Shown piece after piece: positions 53,989-63,799 of a DNA stretch of 64,000 bases. A program made the position numbers and the translations under genes. The stretch spans positions 30,778-94,777 of the forward strand of contig JAGATB010000005.1 of assembly GCA_017621495.1 (NCBI GenBank). The letters are read 5' to 3'. Below the pieces are notes generated by a model. It was given only the letters and a program-made list of their open reading frames with translations. It ran no database searches and had not been told where the DNA came from. Numbering within the stretch: the first letter of the stretch is position 1; each line of letters opens with the position of its first letter. The DNA comes from Clostridia bacterium (GTDB lineage: Bacteria; Bacillota; Clostridia; UMGS1810).

Positions 53989-54912
53989 TTGAATATCCTT
54001 CACCTCAAATACGCAGTTGAGATAGAAAAAACCAAATCCATAAGCCAGGCTGCCAAGAACCTTTATATGGCTCAGCCAAATCTGAGCCGTGCTATAAAAG
54101 AGCTTGAAGAAAAACTCGGAATCACTATTTTTGACAGGACCACCAAGGGTATATCCATTACACCCAAGGGTCAGGAGTTTTTAAACTACTCCAAAAAGAT
54201 ACTCAAGCAAATAGATGATATAGAAAACATGTTTACCGAGAATTATAACGATAAGCAGCACTTTTCCGTATCGGTGCCCCGTGCAAGCTATATATCGCAC
54301 GCCTTCAGCAGATTTGTAAGCTGCATTTCCAGAGACATGCCTATAGAAATCTTTTATAAAGAAACCAATTCCAACCGTGCCATAAGCAACATTCTAAAAG
54401 CGGACTACAAGCTGGGAATAATACGTTATGCCAAAAATTATGATAAATACTTCAAAGAGATGCTTACCGAGAAGGGGCTCTCATACGAGACCATCACGGA
54501 ATTTACCTACGTGCTCTCCATGTCGGCAGAGAGCCCCCTTGCAAAGCTTAATGAGATAACCTTTGATGACCTGGAAAATTTTGTAGAGATAGCCCATGCA
54601 GACCCGTATGTGCCCTCACTGCCCCTTGCCACAGTGCGTAAGGAGGAGCTCCCGGACAACATCAATAAGAGAATATTCGTATACGAGAGAGCCAGCCAGT
54701 ATGAACTGCTCAGCACCAACCCGGACACATTTATGTGGGTGTCGCCCACTCCCGAAGATTTGCTGAAAAAGTACAACCTGGTGCAAAAGAAGTGCAAAGC
54801 AAATACTAAAGTATACAAAGACGTGCTCATATATAAAAACGGATATCACTTAAGTGAACTGGACAATATCTTCATAACAGAGCTTTGCAACGCAAAACGT
54901 AAATATATATAA
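53989..54912 (+). CDS. LysR-family transcriptional regulator
   Basis: 307 residues from TTG 53989, with GGGAGGT eight bases upstream; a nearby ATG is out of frame and stops at once. The N-terminal winged helix has SISQAAKNLYMAQPNLSRAI, then KELEEKLGITIFDRTTKGIS and a linker helix. The C-terminal LysR substrate-binding domain (about 90-300) follows. The co-inducer and targets are unknown. It is divergent from rny and precedes the rex-adhE unit, which could be a target. A hairpin follows the stop. Confidence 0.88.
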   Translation: MNILHLKYAVEIEKTKSISQAAKNLYMAQPNLSRAIKELEEKLGITIFDRTTKGISITPKGQEFLNYSKKILKQIDDIENMFTENYNDKQHFSVSVPRASYISHAFSRFVSCISRDMPIEIFYKETNSNRAISNILKADYKLGIIRYAKNYDKYFKEMLTEKGLSYETITEFTYVLSMSAESPLAKLNEITFDDLENFVEIAHADPYVPSLPLATVRKEELPDNINKRIFVYERASQYELLSTNPDTFMWVSPTPEDLLKKYNLVQKKCKANTKVYKDVLIYKNGYHLSELDNIFITELCNAKRKYI

Positions 54913-54923
54913 ATGTATTGGTT

Positions 54924-54971
54924 AATATCCATAACCGTCAGCCTGTGTAGGGCTTTCGTGTTATGGATATT
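54924..54971 (+). terminator. Hairpin after the LysR gene
   Basis: AATATCCATAAC / GTTATGGATATT, a 12-bp stem enclosing a smaller AGCC/GGCT stem. The 3' strand abuts the Rex-like site. Confidence 0.6.
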
Positions 54972-54987
54972 GTTATATCGATAAAAA
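54970..54987. promoter_or_regulatory. Candidate Rex operator
   Basis: TTGTTATATCGATAAAAA matches 11 of 14 fixed positions of the clostridial Rex consensus TTGTTAA-N4-TTAACAA. It lies 25 bp upstream of the -35 of the rex-adhE promoter. An imperfect second half makes this tentative. Confidence 0.45.
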
Positions 54988-55011: not shown

Positions 55012-55041
55012 TTTACAATATATGACCTTTTGTGATAAAAT
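55012..55041 (+). promoter_or_regulatory. Promoter of the rex-adhE-hydrogenase unit
   Basis: TTTACA, an 18-bp spacer, TAAAAT; the rex start lies 40 bp downstream. Confidence 0.65.
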
Positions 55042-55080: not shown

Positions 55081-55719
55081 ATGTCAGGACTTAAAATTTC
55101 AAAAGCATCACTTGCCAGACTGCCTATATATCTGGATTGTCTGAAGTCTCTGCCCCACTCGGCAGGCGAATACACCTCAGCTGCACAGATAGCATCAGCA
55201 CTGAAGCTTGGCGAAATACAAGTTCGTAAAGATTTAGCGGCTGTATCTCAAGGCGGCAAACCTCGCATAGGATATAAGACAGAGTCGCTTATAAATGACA
55301 TTGAAAGCTACCTTGGCTACAACAAGACAATAAACGCCGTTCTCGTAGGCGCGGGGAAACTTGGCAAGGCGCTTCTGGAGTATAGCAGGTTTTCAGAATA
55401 CGGTCTCGATATCGTAGCGGCGTTTGATATATCCGAGGATAACCTTGGAAGCGCAAACAACGGAAAAATAATATATCACTTAGATAATTTTTCCGAAATC
55501 TGCAAAAATTGCAACGCACAGATAGGTATAATTACCGTACCCTGTGCAAGCGCTCAGGATGTGTGCAGCCTGATGGTTGAAAGCGGAATCAAAGCCATAT
55601 GGAACTTCGCTTCATCACATCTTGATGTACCCGAAGATGTATGGGTACAAAATGAAAATATGGCGGCGTCGGTAGCTCTGTTGTCAGGGCACCTGACAAA
55701 CAACCAAAAAATTCTGTAA
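55081..55719 (+). CDS. rex: Redox-sensing transcriptional repressor Rex
   Basis: 212 residues. The N-terminal winged helix has ISKASLARLPIYLDCL and ALKLGEIQVRKDLAAVSQ. The Rossmann NADH-binding motif is AVLVGAGKLGKALLEY. The C-terminal swap helix ends VALLSGHLTNNQK. Rex represses fermentation genes when NAD+ is high and lets go when NADH rises. AdhE is a known Rex target and follows 13 bp after the stop. RBS AAAGGAGG before ATG 55081. Confidence 0.95.
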   Translation: MSGLKISKASLARLPIYLDCLKSLPHSAGEYTSAAQIASALKLGEIQVRKDLAAVSQGGKPRIGYKTESLINDIESYLGYNKTINAVLVGAGKLGKALLEYSRFSEYGLDIVAAFDISEDNLGSANNGKIIYHLDNFSEICKNCNAQIGIITVPCASAQDVCSLMVESGIKAIWNFASSHLDVPEDVWVQNENMAASVALLSGHLTNNQKIL

Positions 55720-55732
55720 AGGAGAATCAGTA

Positions 55733-58351
55733 ATGAGCAACAAAGTTTATGAAATTGTAGACGCACCCGAAAAGCTGGAAGCTAAAATCGCAAGCGTCAG
55801 AGAGGCACAGAAGATTTTTGCCACCTACACACAGGAGCAGGTTGACAAGATTTTTCTGGCGGCTGCAAGTGCGGCAAACAAGGCAAGAATTGAGCTTGCC
55901 AAGATGGCTGTAGAAGAAACAGGCATGGGTATAGTAGAAGATAAGGTTATAAAGAACCACTACGCTTCCGAATATATCTACAATGCTTACAAAGACACCA
56001 AGACATGCGGTGTTATAGAAGAAGATGCCTCCTACGGTATCAAGAAGATTGCAGAGCCTATAGGTCTTATAGCTGCGGTTATACCTACAACTAACCCCAC
56101 ATCCACTGCTATATTCAAGACACTTATCTCGCTTAAGACCAGAAACGGTATTATCATAAGCCCCCACCCCAGAGCAAAGAACAGCACAATTGCCGCTTCT
56201 AAGATTGTCCTGGAAGCAGCAGTAGCAGCAGGTGCTCCGGAGGGTATCATAGGCTGGATTGACGTACCCAGTCTTGAGATGACTAACTTAATAATGAAGG
56301 AAGCTGACACAATCCTGGCCACAGGCGGCCCCGGCATGGTTAAGGCAGCATACTCCAGCGGTAAGCCCGCACTGGGTGTAGGAGCAGGTAACACCCCGGC
56401 TATCATCGACGAAAGTGCAGACATCGTGCTGGCAGTAAGCTCCATCATACACTCCAAGACATTTGACAACGGTATGATTTGTGCTTCCGAACAGTCTGTA
56501 ATCGTTCCTTCATCCATATATGCAAAGGTTAAGAAGGAATTCCAGACACGAGGCTGTTATTTCTTAACAGCAGAAGAAACCGAAAAGGTTCGTAAGACAA
56601 TCATCATAAACGGTGCATTAAATGCCAAGATAGTGGGTCAGAGTGCACACAAGATTGCCGCTTTGGCAGGTGTAGACGTACCGGAAAAGACAAAGATTAT
56701 AATCGGCGAAGTAGAGAGTGTAGACCTCTCTGAGGAATTCGCTCATGAAAAGCTCTCCCCCGTACTCGCTATGTACAAGGTTAAGGACTTTAGCGAAGCT
56801 CTCGCCAAGGCAGAAGTACTGGTTGCAGACGGCGGCTACGGCCACACATCTTCACTGTATATAAACACAACCACCGAAAAGGAAAAAATGGCAGAGCACG
56901 CTGCAAGGATGAAAACCTGCCGTATAGTAATAAACACTCCTTCATCCCACGGCGGTATAGGCGACCTCTACAACTTCAGACTTGCTCCCTCGCTGACACT
57001 TGGCTGCGGTTCCTGGGGCGGTAACTCCGTATCTGAGAACGTAGGAGTAAAGCACTTAATCAATATCAAAACTGTTGCCGAGAGGAGAGAGAATATGCTT
57101 TGGTTCAGAGCACCCGAAAAGATTTATATTAAGAAGGGCTGTCTGCCTGTTGCTCTTGATGAACTTAAAAACGTAATGAACAAAAAGAGAGCCTTCATAG
57201 TAACAGATACCTTCCTTTATGAGAACGGATATACGAAATGCATCACAGATAAGCTGGATGAAATGGGTATAGCGCACTCCACATTCTTCAACGTAGCTCC
57301 CGACCCCACACTTGCCTGCGCTAAGGAAGGTGCTGAGCAGATGAGAGCCTTCAAGCCCGATACTATCATAGCACTGGGCGGCGGTTCTGCTATGGACGCT
57401 GCTAAGATTATGTGGGTGATGTATGAGCATCCCGAAGCCGACTTCATGGATATGGCTATGAGATTTATAGATATCAGAAAGAGAGTATACACCTTCCCCA
57501 AAATGGGTGAAAAGGCATACTTCATAGCTATCCCCACATCTGCAGGTACAGGCTCCGAGGTAACTCCCTTTGCAGTTATCACAGATGAACAGACCGGAGT
57601 TAAATATCCGCTGGCAGACTACGAGCTCCTGCCCAACATGGCTATAGTTGACACAGACCTCCACATGTCTGCTCCCAAGGGTCTCACAGCAGCATCCGGT
57701 ATAGATGCTGTAACCCACGCTCTCGAAGCTTATGCTTCCATGCTGGCTACAGATTACACAGACGGCTTGGCACTGCGCTCACTGAAGATGGTATTTGAAT
57801 ACCTCCCCAGAGCTTATGACAACGGTCTCACAGATGTAGAAGCACGTGAAAAGATGGCTAATGCAGCTACAATGGCAGGTATGGCGTTTGCTAACGCATT
57901 CCTGGGTGTATGCCACTCTATGGCTCATAAGCTGGGTGCATTCCACCACCTGCCCCACGGTGTGGCAAATGCCCTCATGATAGACGAAGTATTGAAGTTC
58001 AATGCAGAAGAATGCCCCGTAAAGATGGGTACATTCTCTCAGTATGACCACCCACACACACTTGCAAGATATGCAGAAGTAGCTGACTACCTGGGTATCA
58101 AGGGTAAAAATAATGAAGAAAAGCTTGAAAACCTCATCAAAGCTCTCGATGAGCTCAAAGAAAAGGTTGGCATAAAGAAGACCATCAAAGAATACGGTAT
58201 TGATGAAAAGGTATTCCTGGATAACCTCGACGAAATGGTAGAACAGGCATTTGATGACCAGTGCACCGGTGCTAACCCCAGATATCCGCTTATGAGTGAA
58301 ATCAAGCAGATGTATCTCAATTCATATTACGGTAAAAATGAACGCGTGTGA
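55733..58351 (+). CDS. adhE: Bifunctional acetaldehyde-CoA/alcohol dehydrogenase
   Basis: 872 residues, full length. The N-terminal aldehyde dehydrogenase domain has PTTNPTSTAIFKTLISLKTR and the catalytic Cys250 in DNGMICASEQSV. The C-terminal iron-dependent alcohol dehydrogenase has GGGSAMDAAKIMWV, IDAVTHALEAY and the metal-binding GVCHSMAHKLGAF and HHLPHGVANA. It reduces acetyl-CoA to ethanol via acetaldehyde with two NADH and forms spirosome filaments. It is under Rex control by position. RBS AAAGGAGAA. Confidence 0.97.
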   Translation: MSNKVYEIVDAPEKLEAKIASVREAQKIFATYTQEQVDKIFLAAASAANKARIELAKMAVEETGMGIVEDKVIKNHYASEYIYNAYKDTKTCGVIEEDASYGIKKIAEPIGLIAAVIPTTNPTSTAIFKTLISLKTRNGIIISPHPRAKNSTIAASKIVLEAAVAAGAPEGIIGWIDVPSLEMTNLIMKEADTILATGGPGMVKAAYSSGKPALGVGAGNTPAIIDESADIVLAVSSIIHSKTFDNGMICASEQSVIVPSSIYAKVKKEFQTRGCYFLTAEETEKVRKTIIINGALNAKIVGQSAHKIAALAGVDVPEKTKIIIGEVESVDLSEEFAHEKLSPVLAMYKVKDFSEALAKAEVLVADGGYGHTSSLYINTTTEKEKMAEHAARMKTCRIVINTPSSHGGIGDLYNFRLAPSLTLGCGSWGGNSVSENVGVKHLINIKTVAERRENMLWFRAPEKIYIKKGCLPVALDELKNVMNKKRAFIVTDTFLYENGYTKCITDKLDEMGIAHSTFFNVAPDPTLACAKEGAEQMRAFKPDTIIALGGGSAMDAAKIMWVMYEHPEADFMDMAMRFIDIRKRVYTFPKMGEKAYFIAIPTSAGTGSEVTPFAVITDEQTGVKYPLADYELLPNMAIVDTDLHMSAPKGLTAASGIDAVTHALEAYASMLATDYTDGLALRSLKMVFEYLPRAYDNGLTDVEAREKMANAATMAGMAFANAFLGVCHSMAHKLGAFHHLPHGVANALMIDEVLKFNAEECPVKMGTFSQYDHPHTLARYAEVADYLGIKGKNNEEKLENLIKALDELKEKVGIKKTIKEYGIDEKVFLDNLDEMVEQAFDDQCTGANPRYPLMSEIKQMYLNSYYGKNERV

Positions 58352-58364
58352 GGAGGAAAAGTAA

Positions 58365-59114
58365 ATGAAACTTGATAAGATTATTGCAGTAAGAACCAAT
58401 AAGACAGTATATCGCGAAGGCGACAATGCTGTGAAGGTTTTTGACAAGGAATTCTCCAAGGCTGATGTACTCAACGAAGCATTAAATCAGGCTCGTATAG
58501 AGGAAACCGGCATCAATATTCCCAAAATAAAGGAAGTTACCGTTATAGACGGCAACTGGGCTATTGTATCCGAATATATAGAAGGCAAGACCCTGGCACA
58601 GCTCATGCAGGAGAACCCCGACAAATATGACGAATATCTTGAAATGTTTGTGGACCTTCAGTTGGAAATCCACAAGCACAAGGCACCTCTGCTCAACAAA
58701 CTCAAGGATAAAATGAACAGAAAGATTTCCGAAGCAGAACTGGACGCTACCACAAGATATGAGCTCCACACACGTCTGGACTCCATGCCCAAGCACAACA
58801 AGGTGTGCCACGGTGACTTCAACCCCAGTAACGTTATCGTAAGCACAGACGGCACCCTCTACGTGCTCGACTGGTCTCATGCAACTCAGGGTAATGCTTC
58901 CGCTGACGTAGCAAGAACCTACCTCCTCTTCTGGCTGAGCGGCGATATCGACGGTGCCAAGAAGTATCTGGACCTCTTCTGCAAGAAGAGCGACACAGCT
59001 AAGCAATACGTGCAGAAGTGGATGCCGATTGTAGCTGCATCACAGTCCGTTAAGGGCAAACCCGAGGAAAGAGAATTCCTGCTTTCTTGGGTAGACGTAG
59101 TAGATTACGAATAA
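58365..59114 (+). CDS. APH/choline-kinase-fold phosphotransferase
   Basis: 249 residues with a protein-kinase-like fold. The N-lobe has KTVYREGDNAVKVFDKEFSK; the hinge has VSEYIEGKTLAQLM; the catalytic loop is VCHGDFNPSNVIV with Asp and Asn; the metal-binding Asp is in YVLDWSHATQGN. This family phosphorylates small molecules (aminoglycosides, choline, sugars) or, rarely, proteins. Its place between adhE and a redox-sensing hydrogenase, with a PP2C-type phosphatase downstream, is unusual. I remember a similar order near rex-adhE in Clostridium thermocellum. The substrate is unknown. Confidence 0.8.
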   Translation: MKLDKIIAVRTNKTVYREGDNAVKVFDKEFSKADVLNEALNQARIEETGINIPKIKEVTVIDGNWAIVSEYIEGKTLAQLMQENPDKYDEYLEMFVDLQLEIHKHKAPLLNKLKDKMNRKISEAELDATTRYELHTRLDSMPKHNKVCHGDFNPSNVIVSTDGTLYVLDWSHATQGNASADVARTYLLFWLSGDIDGAKKYLDLFCKKSDTAKQYVQKWMPIVAASQSVKGKPEEREFLLSWVDVVDYE

Positions 59115-59131
59115 TAAGGAGAAAAACTGAC

Positions 59132-59374
59132 ATGAAAATTACAGTATGTATCGGCAGCTCCTGCCATTTGAAAGGTTCCAGACAGGTAGTTGAACAGCTT
59201 CAGTATCTCATATCAGAAAACAATTTAAAAGATAAGGTAGACTTGGGCGGAACCTTTTGCATGGGTGACTGCCAGAATGGCGTGTGCGTAAAGATAGACG
59301 ACAAGGCGTACTCCGTGGATCCCGACACTACCAATGAATTCTTTAAAACCGAAGTTTTGGCTAAAATAAGCTGA
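59132..59374 (+). CDS. [2Fe-2S] ferredoxin-like protein (NuoE-type thioredoxin fold)
   Basis: 80 residues from ATG 59132; a longer in-frame version starts inside the kinase gene. Four cysteines sit in VCIGSSCHLKGS and GTFCMGDCQNGVC, the spacing of thioredoxin-like [2Fe-2S] ferredoxins that feed hydrogenases or Complex I-type enzymes. It begins 17 bp after the kinase stop. It probably carries electrons to or from the two hydrogenase-like proteins that follow. A terminator-like hairpin separates it from them. Confidence 0.88.
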   Translation: MKITVCIGSSCHLKGSRQVVEQLQYLISENNLKDKVDLGGTFCMGDCQNGVCVKIDDKAYSVDPDTTNEFFKTEVLAKIS

Positions 59375-59401
59375 CACTTCCGGTACAGCATACAATAAAT
59401 T

Positions 59402-59442
59402 AAAGGATTCGGATACAAAATGTTCGAATCCTTTTATTTTTT
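59402..59442 (+). terminator. Internal terminator/attenuator before the sensory hydrogenase
   Basis: AAAGGATTCG / CGAATCCTTT with a 13-base loop, then TATTTTTT. It lies between the ferredoxin and hydrogenase frames; with a good ribosome site right after, partial read-through is likely. Confidence 0.7.
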
Positions 59443-59466
59443 CCAAAAATAACGGAGGAAGCAAAA

Positions 59467-61143
59467 ATGGCTGAATGGCTTAAATTAAAAAAATCGAACT
59501 GTAAAAACTGTTATAAATGCATCCGTCATTGCCCGGTGAAATCCATAAAATTCTCCGGTAATCAGGCACATATAGTAGGAAATGAATGTATTCTCTGCGG
59601 TCAGTGCTTTGTGGTCTGTCCCCAAAATGCAAAGGAAATTGTAGATATGACGGAGAAAGCTAAGGTACTCATACAGACAGGCGCTCCGGTAATTGCCAGC
59701 ATAGCACCTTCCTTCGTGGCAAACTACGAAGGGGTAGGCATAGACTCCATGAGGGAAGCACTACGTAAGCTCGGATTTGCCGATGCAGAGGAAACTGCCC
59801 TGGGTGCCACAACAGTAAAAAATGAATATCACAGAATGCTTAGTGAGGAAAAACGAGATGTACTCATATCCTCCTGTTGCCATTCAGTGAATCTGCTCAT
59901 ACAGAAATACTTTCCAAATGAGCTCAAATACCTTGCCGACACACTCTCACCCATGCAGGCTCACTGCATGGATATAAAGAAACGATATCCCGATGCCAAA
60001 ACCGTATTTATAGGTCCCTGTGTTGCAAAAAAAGATGAGGCTGATTACTACGAAGGCTATGTAGATGCAGTGCTCACCTTTGAGGAACTCACCGAATGGC
60101 TTAAGGAAGCAGGTATAGAGCCGGAAAAGAAGCTTGATTCAACCAACGAAAGCCGCACAAGACTCTTCCCCACTGCAGGCGGTGTGCTGAACTCCATGAC
60201 CGAGAGAGTCTCGGGATATACATACCTTGCCATAGACGGAGTGGAAAACTGTATAGCAGCATTAAAGGAAATAGAAAACGGCGATATACACAACTGCTTC
60301 ATAGAGATGTCCGCATGTCACGGCAGCTGCATCGGCGGCCCGGTAATGGAAAAAAGCCACAAGCAACCGCTCAAAGAATACCGTGCCATCACCCGTTACG
60401 CAGGTGACAAGGATTTCGATGTAGCACCCGCAGACACCAAGGAGCTGTACAAGCACTTGGAAGCAATAGGCAAAAAGCTGGCAATGCCCGACGAAAGCCA
60501 AATAGCAGAAGTAATGCGTAAAATGGGAAAAATAAAGCCCGAGGACGAGCTCAACTGCGGTTCCTGCGGATACAACACATGCCGCGAAAAGGCCATTGCC
60601 ATATTCCAGGGCAAGGCCGAGATTTCAATGTGCATACCATACCTTAAGGAAAAAGCAGAAAGCTTCTCGGATAATATAGTAAACAACACACCCAACGGAA
60701 TTATAGTATTAAATGAAGACCTTGAAGTTCAGAAAATAAATAAATCTGCAAGAAACATCATGAATATACGTTCTGCAAATGACGTACTGGGCGAACCTGT
60801 AATACGCATACTTGACCCCGTGGTGTTCAACTCAGTACTTACCACCGGCAGAAATGTACGCGACAAGCGTGTATACCTTGCGGAATATCAGAAATATGTA
60901 GAGCAGACTATCCTCTATGATAAAGACTACCACATGCTCATATGTATAATGCGCGATATCACAAGCGAAGAAGAAGCCAAGAGCCAAAAGGAAAGTCTAA
61001 GTCTGCAGACCGTGGAAATTGCAGATAAGGTGGTAGACAAGCAGATGCGTATAGTGCAGGAAATTGCATCTCTACTCGGCGAAACCGCCGCTGAAACCAA
61101 GATAGCACTTACAAAATTAAAGGAGTCGATTTCCAATGAATGA
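59467..61143 (+). CDS. hydS: Sensory-type (group C) [FeFe] hydrogenase with PAS domain, HydS-like
   Basis: 558 residues. Two [4Fe-4S] ferredoxin motifs near the N-terminus (CKNCYKCIRHCP and CILCGQCFVVCP). The H-cluster domain has SSCCHSVN (Cys137, Cys138), GPCVAKKDE (Cys185) and SACHGSCIGGP (Cys284, Cys288). The second-sphere pattern is not the usual TSCCP of catalytic group A enzymes. A further cluster motif, CGSCGYNTCREKA, and a PAS-like domain (about 410-510) follow. Such PAS-linked group C enzymes are thought to sense H2 and regulate rather than make it. It overlaps the phosphatase gene by 8 bp. Confidence 0.85.
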   Translation: MAEWLKLKKSNCKNCYKCIRHCPVKSIKFSGNQAHIVGNECILCGQCFVVCPQNAKEIVDMTEKAKVLIQTGAPVIASIAPSFVANYEGVGIDSMREALRKLGFADAEETALGATTVKNEYHRMLSEEKRDVLISSCCHSVNLLIQKYFPNELKYLADTLSPMQAHCMDIKKRYPDAKTVFIGPCVAKKDEADYYEGYVDAVLTFEELTEWLKEAGIEPEKKLDSTNESRTRLFPTAGGVLNSMTERVSGYTYLAIDGVENCIAALKEIENGDIHNCFIEMSACHGSCIGGPVMEKSHKQPLKEYRAITRYAGDKDFDVAPADTKELYKHLEAIGKKLAMPDESQIAEVMRKMGKIKPEDELNCGSCGYNTCREKAIAIFQGKAEISMCIPYLKEKAESFSDNIVNNTPNGIIVLNEDLEVQKINKSARNIMNIRSANDVLGEPVIRILDPVVFNSVLTTGRNVRDKRVYLAEYQKYVEQTILYDKDYHMLICIMRDITSEEEAKSQKESLSLQTVEIADKVVDKQMRIVQEIASLLGETAAETKIALTKLKESISNE

Positions 61144-62308
61144 CCTTTGTGCAGAAATCGGTTACAGAAGCATAAATCACCACGGTGAGGAGCTATGCGG
61201 TGACCACGTGGAAATTGTAAGCGGAGACGAAAATTCAAACGTAATCGTGCTCGCAGACGGGCTCGGAAGCGGTGTTAAGGCGAATATACTCTCCACACTT
61301 ACATCCAAGATAATCTCAACTATGCTCTCTGCCGGCATGACAATTGAAAACTGCGTTGAGACCATAGCTGCTACCCTGCCCGTGTGTTCGGTAAGAGGAG
61401 TGGCATACTCAACCTTTACGATTATAAACCTGGTAAACAACGAGGAGGCAGAAATAATACAATACGATAACCCCTCTGTAATAGTCCTGAGAAATTATGA
61501 GAACTATGACTACCCCAAAACCGAGCTGAACATCGGCGGCAAGAAAATATACAAATCCGTAATTAAGCTTCAGGAAGACGACATATTTGTTGCAATGAGC
61601 GATGGCTGTCCTCACGCAGGAATCGGCATATCGTACAATTTCGGTTGGAAGCACGAGGAAATTGTTGATTTTATGCAGTCTGTGGCAATGGGCGGCTATA
61701 ACGCAAAGAACATGGCAACAATGCTCACCGACGAATGCTACCGTCTTTACGGCGGAGAGCCCGGCGATGATGCAACTGCGTGTGTAGTACACATAAGGAA
61801 ACGCTGCCCCATAAATATCCTCTTCGGTCCTCCGTCAAACAGAAACGATGGTGATAAGATGATGTCGCTGTTTTTCTCAAAGGCGGGTAAACATATAATC
61901 TGCGGAGGCACCACATCGGGAATTGCTGCCAAATATCTCGGCAAGGAGATAGAACCCACTCTGGACTTCCCGGACCCGGAAATTCCGCCCATAGCCAAGC
62001 TGGAAGGCGCAGACCTCGTAACAGAGGGAGTCATAACCGTAAACAAAGTTTTGGAATACGCCAAGGACTTTGTCTCGGAGAACACTAAGTACAGCCATTG
62101 GGAGTACGCCCGGGATGGTGCATCACTCATAAGCCGTATGCTTTTTGAGGAAGCAACGGACATCAACTTCTACGTAGGTCAGGCAGTAAATCCCGCACAT
62201 CAGAACCCCAACCTGCCCATAAACTTCAACATTAAAATGAATCTTGTAAAAGAGCTTACCGAATGTCTATCGAAGATAGGTAAGCGTATAAAAGTGAGCT
62301 ACTTCTAA
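61136..62308 (+). CDS. SpoIIE-family protein phosphatase
   Basis: 390 residues. PP2C-type metal and acidic motifs: VLADGLGSGVKAN, AMSDGCPHAGIGI and GEPGDDATACVVH. This fold removes phosphate from Ser/Thr on regulatory proteins (SpoIIE, RsbU). The C-terminal ~150 residues (from PINILFGPPSNRN) are an added alpha/beta region. Its translation is coupled to the sensory hydrogenase (8-bp overlap), which suggests the PAS-hydrogenase controls it. The phosphoprotein target is unknown; the kinase-like gene three places upstream is a candidate partner. Confidence 0.88.
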   Translation: MNDLCAEIGYRSINHHGEELCGDHVEIVSGDENSNVIVLADGLGSGVKANILSTLTSKIISTMLSAGMTIENCVETIAATLPVCSVRGVAYSTFTIINLVNNEEAEIIQYDNPSVIVLRNYENYDYPKTELNIGGKKIYKSVIKLQEDDIFVAMSDGCPHAGIGISYNFGWKHEEIVDFMQSVAMGGYNAKNMATMLTDECYRLYGGEPGDDATACVVHIRKRCPINILFGPPSNRNDGDKMMSLFFSKAGKHIICGGTTSGIAAKYLGKEIEPTLDFPDPEIPPIAKLEGADLVTEGVITVNKVLEYAKDFVSENTKYSHWEYARDGASLISRMLFEEATDINFYVGQAVNPAHQNPNLPINFNIKMNLVKELTECLSKIGKRIKVSYF

Positions 62309-62332
62309 AATATCGAAAGGAACTGAAATCCC

Positions 62333-63760
62333 ATGAGAAAATTTGATACCAAAGTTCAGCATTTAAAATACAAGGTACTTAGAGAGGTTGCAAGGCTCGC
62401 ATGGAATGACACCCTACTGGAAAAAGTAACCGATATTCCCGAAATGATAGCACCCGGCTCAGAGGCTACCATGCGCTGCTGTGTATACAAGGAAAGAGCC
62501 ATCCTGTCCAAAAGAGTGAAAATTGCTATGGGCGGTGACTCTTCAAATCCCAATGTAATTGAGGTTATAGACATAGCATGCGACGAATGTCCCGTGGGCG
62601 GTTACGAGGTTACCAACGCCTGCAGAGGATGTCTGGCACACAGATGTGAGGATGTGTGCAAAAGAGGTGCCATAACTTTTGATAATCACCAGAAGGCTCA
62701 CATAGACAAATCCAAGTGCGTTGAATGCGGTGCCTGTGCCAAGGTGTGCCCATACAGTGCCATAACAAGCAACAAAAGGCCCTGTCAGAACGCATGCAAG
62801 GTCAAGGCAATATCAATGAACGAACAAAAAACCGCAGTCATCGACAACAACTCGTGTATATCATGCGGAGCGTGTGTGTACCAATGTCCCTTTGGTGCTA
62901 TAACTGATAAATCATTTATACTGAACGTCATAGACATCATAAAAAAGAGCGACTGCAACAGAAAGTACAAGGTGTATGCAGTTGTTGCTCCGTCAATATC
63001 CAGCCAGTTTACATATGCCAAGCTTGGGCAAGTGATTACGGCTATCAAGAAACTGGGTTTTTACTCGGTGATTGAAGCTGCTTTGGGTGCTGACATTGTG
63101 GCGTATGACGAATCCAAAGAGCTCGTGGAGAAGGGCTTTCTTACAAGCTCCTGCTGTCCGGCATTTGTTGACTTTGTGGAGAAAAGCTTCCCGGATTTGA
63201 AACAGTTTGTATCCCATAATCTTTCTCCTATGGCTGTGATTGCCAAGTATATCAAGGCGATGGAGCCCGGCTCTAAGGTGGTGTTCATAGGCCCTTGTAC
63301 CGCCAAGAAGATGGAATTTCAAAAGGAATCTGTAAGACCGTATATAGATGCAGTGATGACTTTTGAGGAGCTTCAGGCACTATTCGACAGCAAAGATATG
63401 GAAATAGCTACCCTGGAGGAGGATGTATTGGACAATGCCTCCTACTACGGCAGGATATTTGCCAGAAGCGGCGGACTCAGCGATGCAGTAGTTCAGGCAC
63501 TCAAAGAGCAAAATATTGACGACTTCGAACTGAAGGCAGTACCCTGCGACGGCATAGAAGCCTGCAAGATGGCTCTGCTCAAGGCAAGAAAAAATGTCCT
63601 CGAAGGAAACTTCATAGAAGGCATGGCATGTATCGGCGGCTGTATAGGCGGTGCGGGCTGTCTGACCCATGGTGTCAAAGACAAAAACGAAGTGGACAAA
63701 TACGGCATGGAGGCATACGAAAAAACAATCAGCGATGCAATTAGCGTGCTGAGAAGCTGA
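62333..63760 (+). CDS. Group B [FeFe] hydrogenase
   Basis: 475 residues. An N-terminal Cys-rich region (CDECPVGGYEVTNACRGCLA, CEDVCKRGA) and two ferredoxin motifs (CVECGACAKVCP and CISCGACVYQCP). The H-cluster loops are SSCCPAFV (Cys274, Cys275), GPCTAKKME (Cys322) and MACIGGCIGGAGCL (Cys433, Cys437, Cys443). This is the group B arrangement (TIGR04105-like), a ferredoxin-linked type whose direction and rate are little studied. It begins 24 bp after the phosphatase stop. It may be an H2-producing partner controlled by the upstream module. Confidence 0.88.
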   Translation: MRKFDTKVQHLKYKVLREVARLAWNDTLLEKVTDIPEMIAPGSEATMRCCVYKERAILSKRVKIAMGGDSSNPNVIEVIDIACDECPVGGYEVTNACRGCLAHRCEDVCKRGAITFDNHQKAHIDKSKCVECGACAKVCPYSAITSNKRPCQNACKVKAISMNEQKTAVIDNNSCISCGACVYQCPFGAITDKSFILNVIDIIKKSDCNRKYKVYAVVAPSISSQFTYAKLGQVITAIKKLGFYSVIEAALGADIVAYDESKELVEKGFLTSSCCPAFVDFVEKSFPDLKQFVSHNLSPMAVIAKYIKAMEPGSKVVFIGPCTAKKMEFQKESVRPYIDAVMTFEELQALFDSKDMEIATLEEDVLDNASYYGRIFARSGGLSDAVVQALKEQNIDDFELKAVPCDGIEACKMALLKARKNVLEGNFIEGMACIGGCIGGAGCLTHGVKDKNEVDKYGMEAYEKTISDAISVLRS

Positions 63761-63774
63761 GAAAAAATATCTGC

Positions 63775-63799
63775 GACGGCTGCATTTAATGCAGCCGTC
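63775..63799 (+). terminator. Hairpin after the hydrogenase gene
   Basis: GACGGCTGCA / TGCAGCCGTC with loop TTTAA, 14 bp after the stop. The following tract is only moderately T-rich. Confidence 0.7.

What the first reader, a model, noticed from the sequence alone, without database searches (positions are those of the whole stretch)
58365..63760. Kinase-fold protein, ferredoxin, PAS-linked hydrogenase and PP2C phosphatase in one rex-adhE operon
Between adhE and a group B [FeFe] hydrogenase lie an APH-type phosphotransferase, a NuoE-like [2Fe-2S] protein, a group C [FeFe] hydrogenase with a PAS domain, and a SpoIIE-type phosphatase whose start overlaps the hydrogenase stop by 8 bp. The order suggests a signalling chain: H2 or redox state is read by the H-cluster and PAS, and the phosphatase (perhaps against the APH protein's product) sets activity of AdhE or the group B hydrogenase. 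HydS-type sensors beside phosphatases are known in clostridia; a role for the APH protein in the same circuit is, to my knowledge, not described.
Basis: partly seen in the sequence, partly recalled or inferred. Interest (0 to 1): 0.75.

Follow-up and report, generated by a model that had tools for sequence, protein, structure and literature searches.

The report
AdhE-linked kinase in H2-sensing operon
This is the predicted hydrogen- and ethanol-forming gene set known from the rumen bacterium Ruminococcus albus 7; across the genomes compared its kinase gene travels with the ethanol-enzyme gene adhE far more than with the hydrogen-sensor gene, so the kinase is likely a partner of AdhE rather than the counterpart of the sensor's phosphatase.

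Summary
The genes are there as described. The block matches the Ruminococcus albus 7 locus (LysR, rex, adhE, phosphotransferase, two 2Fe-2S, HydS, SpoIIE phosphatase, hydrogenase; pRUMAL01) with one 2Fe-2S gene fewer. Signalling from HydS through PAS to an adjacent "Ser/Thr kinase" was proposed in 2014 (known here second-hand), so the circuit idea is not new. In 391 genomes APH tracks adhE (both 82, adhE only 35, APH only 6, neither 268), much less HydS (42, 68, 46, 235). It lies beside HydS in 27 of 110 HydS genomes, and occurs as an adhE-APH pair in genomes where no HydS was found; Collinsella has the pair with no hydrogenase nearby. In four genomes without adhE, APH has diverged faster relative to HydS than in 17 of 18 others. 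Best reading: an AdhE-linked kinase joined to a HydS-phosphatase-hydrogenase module; substrate unknown, fold nearest to small-molecule kinases. A terminator-like hairpin found only in this genome among 75 loci lies before hydS. An ordinary operon with one modest new inference.

The parts
53989..54912 (+).
   Evidence: PF00126 66.4 bits; LysR in the same place in R. albus 7; LysR match of 250 bits or more in 25 of 37 named loci with 6 kb or more upstream, rex in 14 of 37
54970..54987 (+). Rex-operator-like site TTGTTATATCGATAAAAA upstream of rex (consensus recalled)
   Evidence: 1 mismatch to TTGTTANNNNNNTAACAA; 2 such sites in the window, 0.43 expected, 7 of 100 shuffles reach 2: suggestive only
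55012..55041 (+). sigma-70-like promoter TTTACA-18-TAAAAT with TG before the second hexamer
   Evidence: 10 of 12; promoter-like sites as a class are not above chance there (24 found, 20.0 expected)
55081..55719 (+). rex, redox-sensing repressor
   Evidence: NF003994 270 bits, cut-off 130
55733..58351 (+). adhE, bifunctional acetaldehyde-CoA/alcohol dehydrogenase
   Evidence: NF010378 1394 bits, cut-off 951
58365..59114 (+). APH-fold kinase gene, 249 aa; K24, E38, H149-G-D151, N156, D169 present
59132..59374 (+). 80-aa thioredoxin-like [2Fe-2S] protein (NuoE-like C-terminal half)
   Evidence: PF01257 33.7 bits; 57 of 75 loci and R. albus 7 have two in tandem
59402..59434 (+). terminator-like hairpin, 14 pairs, followed by TATTTTTT; sits where most relatives have the second 2Fe-2S gene
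   Evidence: RNA fold of 59375-59460 -25.8 kcal/mol, z -6.1; found by script in 1 of 75 APH-HydS loci, this one
59467..61143 (+). HydS: 2 x [4Fe-4S], H-cluster domain, C-terminal FeS motif, PAS, C-terminal tail
61136..62308 (+). SpoIIE/PP2C-type phosphatase (about 1-223) with a conserved C-terminal 166-aa region of no Pfam family
62333..63760 (+). group B1 monomeric [FeFe] hydrogenase (HydA2/HfsD counterpart)
   Evidence: TIGR04105 572 bits, cut-off 450
63775..63799 (+). hairpin after the last gene (weak T tail), possible operon end

Best explanation
This is the R. albus 7-type rex-adhE-APH-[2Fe-2S]-hydS-phosphatase-hydrogenase locus, in which the HydS-phosphatase pair would report H2, and the APH-fold kinase is likely a partner of AdhE, predicted to act on AdhE itself or on its pathway rather than to oppose the phosphatase. 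Shown here: gene order, family assignments, kinase and phosphatase motifs, the statistical tie of APH to adhE, and the faster divergence of APH relative to HydS in four genomes without adhE. Inferred: H2 binding at the HydS H-cluster changes the PAS/C-terminal part; the phosphatase, whose gene overlaps hydS, then dephosphorylates an unknown protein; this, with Rex (NADH) and perhaps LysR, sets transcription of ethanol and H2 genes. Inferred and weaker: the APH protein phosphorylates or binds AdhE and tunes the ethanol branch.
For: Same locus in R. albus 7 (APH 71% identical). 391-genome survey (tables): APH with AdhE of 65% identity or more 82 / AdhE only 35 / APH only 6 / neither 268 (odds ratio 105); APH with HydS 42/68/46/235 (3.2). 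Counting any AdhE at E 1e-200: 83/91/5/212. Of genomes with HydS at 60% or more, those with AdhE (65%) have APH 19 of 19, those without 6 of 23; two of these 6 (G262, G362) show AdhE cut at a contig end; with any AdhE the figures are 20 of 23 and 5 of 19. No APH in 211 of 211 genomes without AdhE (65%) and HydS. In the window's own family, genomes with adhE and no HydS have APH in 3 of 3, with HydS and no adhE in 1 of 4. 75 of 93 APH rows lie within 800 bp of AdhE, 73 directly downstream (one gene, in G039, counts twice). adhE-APH with no hydrogenase gene in the 12.7 kb shown in Collinsella, another phylum. APH/HydS divergence ratio 1.09-1.37 in 4 genomes without adhE, 0.36-1.28 (median 0.58) in 18 others. 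Literature: hfsB deletion raised adhE transcript and ethanol, with hfsC and hfsD needed in that study; the R. albus eight-gene cluster fell 111-fold in co-culture with an H2 user.
Against: APH lies beside HydS with no adhE next to it in G153, G343, G235, G126, G386 and G010:C13 (the last two genomes have adhE elsewhere), so it is not tied to adhE alone. 35 genomes with AdhE at 65% or more lack APH, five of them in a genus where five others have it (g14), so AdhE does not need it. G374 breaks the rate rule (adhE beside APH, ratio 1.28), and long APH branches also occur in adhE-linked rows (G192, G207, G066/G166). The conserved H144 is lost in 3 of the 4 genomes without adhE but also in two with adhE beside APH (G209, G248), so it does not discriminate. 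Counts are not corrected for phylogeny, G235 and G126 share a genus, and many genomes are incomplete MAGs. A scan of AdhE for residues that follow APH found diffuse differences and no clear phosphosite. The fold says kinase, not which substrate. Against the H2-signal part: in T. thermosaccharolyticum hfsD alone, in a strain without hfsABCD, gave the ethanol phenotype, which fits electron flow without HydS or phosphatase. Odds set at 0.60 (0.62 in the draft) for the H144 recount.
Confidence: 0.6

Rival explanations
1. APH and the SpoIIE-type phosphatase are an opposing kinase/phosphatase pair on one protein, driven by HydS.
For: Same block in this window and in 54 of 66 close named relatives with readable downstream DNA; six loci keep APH beside HydS with no adhE next to it, all six with D151; Zheng's proposal as told in PMC5707799. 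The genome's one STAS/RsbW-like pair lies on another contig.
Against: 68 of 110 HydS genomes have no APH, 66 of these with the phosphatase beside HydS; 46 of 88 APH genomes had no HydS; APH divergence relative to HydS rises where adhE is absent; the genome has other kinases (6 PF00069 matches).
Confidence: 0.2
2. APH is a small-molecule kinase that serves the AdhE pathway (for example removing or activating a metabolite), with no part in signalling.
Against: No candidate metabolite is evident from the neighbours; identity of 70-82% in 62 of 92 rows other than the window's own would be high for a lone metabolite kinase but proves nothing.
Confidence: 0.3
3. The conserved order is only a shared promoter under Rex and LysR: the proteins do not interact and the APH-adhE link is inherited gene order.
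For: Rex-like site and promoter-like site upstream, both weak by statistics; strong inheritance of order in related MAGs.
Against: In HydS-bearing relatives APH is mostly absent where adhE is absent and diverged where it stays; adhE-APH also in Collinsella with other flanks.
Confidence: 0.15

Closest known systems
Ruminococcus albus 7 locus on pRUMAL01 (RUMAL_RS17350-RS17385; Zheng et al. 2014; Greening et al. 2019)
   Same: Same genes in the same order and strand, LysR upstream, 8-bp HydS/phosphatase overlap
   Different: One [2Fe-2S] gene instead of two; a terminator-like hairpin before hydS; R. albus has an electron-bifurcating hydrogenase, while this incomplete genome shows two PF02906 proteins and one PF01512 protein, in a frame of 442 aa
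hfsABCD of Thermoanaerobacterium species
   Same: HydS with PAS (HfsB), serine phosphatase (HfsC), ferredoxin-linked hydrogenase (HfsD); hfsB deletion changes adhE expression
   Different: Described as four genes, none named as a kinase; adhE is discussed there as a separate locus
HydDB group C3 [FeFe]-hydrogenases, phosphatase-linked (putative)
   Same: PAS-bearing H-cluster protein beside a Ser/Thr phosphatase gene
   Different: Cys kept at the first position of the CC pair in motif L1 (104 of 109 rows), where TmHydS and TamHydS have Ala (mapping recalled)
APH/choline-kinase fold phosphotransferases (PF01636; TIGR02172 nearest NCBIfam model, below cut-off)
   Same: Fold and catalytic motif
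   Different: A family of about 249 aa found mostly beside adhE; none of the 25 NCBIfam models listed (of 29 matched) reaches its cut-off

Membership tests
R. albus rex-adhE-hydS operon | gene content and order rex, adhE, kinase-like, 2Fe-2S, hydS, phosphatase, hydrogenase | tested here: met
   one of two 2Fe-2S genes missing
R. albus rex-adhE-hydS operon | single transcript, lowered with an H2-using partner | not testable with these tools
   terminator-like hairpin before hydS leaves the transcript open
HydDB group C3 sensory [FeFe]-hydrogenase | H-cluster Cys, N-terminal FeS, C-terminal FeS, PAS | tested here: met
HydDB group C3 sensory [FeFe]-hydrogenase | Ser/Thr phosphatase gene beside it | tested here: met
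   109 of 115 rows in the survey
HydDB group C3 sensory [FeFe]-hydrogenase | H2 sensing | not testable with these tools
   putative also in the literature read
APH-fold kinases (PF01636) | Pfam score above cut-off, kinase fold, HGDxxxxN and D(F/W) | tested here: met
Hanks-type Ser/Thr protein kinases (PF00069) | score above Pfam cut-off | tested here: not met
   25.2 bits, cut-off 31.7
Protein kinase by function | phosphorylates a protein | not testable with these tools
   substrate unknown
SpoIIE/RsbU-type PP2C phosphatases | PF07228 and metal-binding Asp (positions recalled) | tested here: met
RsbU/SpoIIE partner-switching module | STAS and RsbW-like partners in the locus | tested here: not met
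   one STAS/HATPase_c_2 pair (C27), a STAS domain in a 560-aa frame (C33) and a weak HATPase match (C3) in the genome, none on the window's contig

The most novel reading that the evidence does not exclude
adhE and this APH-fold gene form an undescribed two-gene module in which the kinase phosphorylates AdhE and sets the ethanol branch; in gut and rumen Clostridia the module was joined to a HydS-phosphatase-hydrogenase module, so that H2 acts on transcription while the kinase acts on the enzyme, and loss of adhE frees the kinase to drift.
Probability: 0.28. Interest if true: 0.68.

Novelty: new member of a known kind. Interest (0 to 1): 0.36.

Why it matters
How anaerobes choose between ethanol, acetate and H2 when H2 builds up is a standing question in rumen and biofuel microbiology, and this operon is a leading candidate switch. 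The proposal in print runs from HydS to the adjacent kinase. If the kinase instead belongs to AdhE, the signal path has to be looked for elsewhere, and AdhE gains a candidate dedicated regulator that can be tested with two purified proteins.

Tried and rejected
AdhE residues that follow APH presence (88 AdhE beside APH, 33 not): differences diffuse and mixed with phylogeny; S333, S603 and S769 are the best Ser columns against 17 close APH-less rows but not convincing. H144 as a mark of adhE loss: rejected on recount, two adhE-linked rows lack it too. Terminator as a conserved attenuator: rejected, 1 of 75 loci. A partner switch (STAS/RsbW) in the locus: none found. Structure of the phosphatase's C-terminal region: barely touched by the structural matches, so its fold is untested; no Pfam match. 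The phylum-wide search with the Collinsella APH gave 5 of 398 genomes, four of them already seen and one 40% match not looked into. Literature on an adhE-phosphotransferase pair: none seen in the listings, in a library of open-licence papers only. Rows dropped or set aside before counting: 11 HydS matches in long frames (757-919 aa, 33-39% identity; 7 genomes had only these, so 117 genomes became 110); AdhE rows under 65% identity; AdhE rows past the end of the list could not be sorted by identity and count as absent in the 65% tables (174 genomes became 117; the table with all 174 is); APH rows under 50% (3 of 96 rows, 90 genomes became 88); G066, G262 and genomes without full-length APH and HydS in the fetched loci left out of the rate test.
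Full report
What is there. The window end holds, on the + strand, LysR (53989-54912), rex, adhE, an APH-fold protein, an 80-aa [2Fe-2S] protein, a HydS-type [FeFe] hydrogenase with PAS, a SpoIIE-type phosphatase overlapping it by 8 bp, and a group B1 [FeFe] hydrogenase. Gaps are 13 nt (adhE-APH), 17 nt (APH-[2Fe-2S]), 92 nt ([2Fe-2S]-hydS) and 24 nt (phosphatase-hydrogenase), read from the coordinates. The 92-nt gap holds a 14-pair hairpin with a T-rich tail (z -6.1). Of 75 loci with APH and HydS, 57 have two [2Fe-2S] genes there, and none of the other 74 shows such a hairpin by my script. A Rex-like site and a promoter-like site lie before rex; neither is strong by statistics.

Known or not. 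R. albus 7 plasmid pRUMAL01 carries LysR, rex, adhE, phosphotransferase, two (2Fe-2S) proteins, HydS, SpoIIE phosphatase and a 4Fe-4S hydrogenase in this order, with the same 8-bp overlap. From rex on that is eight genes, which fits the eight-gene cluster that Greening et al. 2019 found 111-fold down in co-culture with the H2 user Wolinella (passages read). Zheng et al. 2014 was not held; PMC5707799 (passages and discussion section) says they proposed sensing by HydS and transduction through PAS to an adjacent Ser/Thr kinase. I recall its abstract as listing a kinase, a phosphatase and the repressor in one unit. One of the 120 homologues listed bears the name 'RIO-like serine/threonine protein kinase', others 'phosphotransferase', so 'protein kinase' is an annotation. 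In T. saccharolyticum, hfsB (HydS) deletion raised ethanol and adhE transcript, while hfsC (phosphatase) and hfsD were needed. A 2025 study in T. thermosaccharolyticum (passages) found that hfsD alone, in a strain without the hfs operon, gave the ethanol phenotype, which favours an electron-flow account over signalling. HydDB names phosphatase-linked hydrogenases C3, role undetermined (passages).

Neighbourhood test. I searched the same 391 genomes of the class for APH, HydS, phosphatase and AdhE and compared positions. HydS has the phosphatase within 2 kb in 109 of 115 rows; the 6 others include pieces at contig ends. APH is within 800 bp of AdhE in 75 of 93 rows and of HydS in 28. APH and AdhE (65% or more) co-occur in 82 genomes (35 AdhE only, 6 APH only, 268 neither); APH and HydS in 42 (68, 46, 235). 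Among genomes with HydS at 60% identity or more, AdhE+ have APH in 19 of 19 and AdhE- in 6 of 23; two of the 6 have AdhE cut at a contig end. With any AdhE at E 1e-200 the figures are 20 of 23 and 5 of 19. Genomes with neither AdhE (65%) nor HydS: 0 of 211 have APH. Among 80 named loci, the best of 512 candidates and so biased to close kin, 76 of 76 readable ones have AdhE upstream and 54 of 66 have HydS downstream, all 54 with phosphatase. Collinsella aerofaciens has adhE-APH (54% identical) with no hydrogenase gene in the 12.7 kb shown; Monoglobus has [2Fe-2S]-HydS-phosphatase-hydrogenase with no APH or adhE in the 13.7 kb shown. These counts are not corrected for relatedness, and AdhE is also often without APH (35 genomes).

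Loss of adhE. In four genomes that are not among the 174 with an AdhE match at E 1e-200 (G153, G343, G235, G126) APH stays beside HydS. In G153 LysR directly precedes APH; G343 has a 405-aa iron alcohol dehydrogenase in adhE's place. Their APH branches are long: 1.17 for the G235/G126 stem, 0.74 and 0.43, against an end-branch median of 0.17. The distance of APH to reference genomes relative to that of HydS is 1.09-1.37 in these four and 0.36-1.28 (median 0.58) in 18 others, two of which have adhE elsewhere; one-sided Mann-Whitney p 0.0003, uncorrected for kinship; G374 (1.28, adhE beside APH) is the exception. APH genes away from both adhE and HydS also sit on long branches (G243 0.66, G027 0.56, G352 0.5, stem of G321/G233/G357 0.55), but so do some adhE-linked ones (G207 0.62, G192 0.54, stem of G066/G166 0.6), and G386 (0.18) and G010 (0.094), with adhE elsewhere, do not. 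H144, kept in 49 of 54 survey rows and in the 80 named rows, is lost in three of the four genomes without adhE but also in G209 and G248, which have adhE. I read the rate result as adhE helping to hold APH in place; it is suggestive, not decisive.

HydS and phosphatase. The 15 FeS and H-cluster cysteines tallied are kept in 109 of 109 HydS rows (some proteins appear under two names). The first Cys of the CC pair in motif L1 is also kept in 104 of 109, whereas a paper says that this proton-relay Cys is Ala in TmHydS and TamHydS (passages); the mapping rests on the recalled CC motif. The phosphatase has D41, D156, D211 and D212 invariant in 60 rows and a fold like SpoIIE, plus a conserved C-terminal 166 aa with no Pfam family.

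Genome. G000 (89% complete) has two PF02906 proteins, both in this operon, HydF on the same contig 3.3 kb before the window, one PF01512 protein in a frame of 442 aa, which in length looks like RnfC rather than a bifurcating-hydrogenase subunit (inference), four SpoIIE-type matches, one weak, and six PF00069 matches.

Verdict. An ordinary member of a described operon type.

Noticed in passing
53989-54912: A LysR-type regulator precedes the rex-adhE block in R. albus 7 and is in 25 of 37 named loci with enough upstream DNA, more often than rex (14 of 37); in L121 (G153) it stays while adhE is missing. It may be the operon's regulator.
   Followed up: partly
59402-59434: Terminator-like hairpin in the place of the second [2Fe-2S] gene; not found in 74 other loci read.
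   Followed up: yes
61808-62305: C-terminal 166 aa of the HydS-linked phosphatase, strongly conserved (GGTTS, DGA and TEG motifs), matches no Pfam family.
   Followed up: partly
59869-59886 (HydS residues 135-140): This HydS family keeps Cys where characterised sensory hydrogenases have Ala (104 of 109 rows).
   Followed up: partly
P0121-P0240: Sister family of the APH protein (about 48-64% identical to it in the rows aligned), with Asn for the catalytic Asp in 103 of 120; possibly weakly active or inactive kinases; two of this Asn type, G207 and G027, were met in the survey, one beside adhE.
   Followed up: partly
L111 11927-14670: In G152 the adhE-APH pair is followed by another gene group: an RsbW-like HATPase, a second type of PF02906 protein and a protein that looks PHP-like by eye.
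   Followed up: no
G000:C11:26368-27516 (outside the window): HydF maturase gene 3.3 kb before the window start.
   Followed up: no
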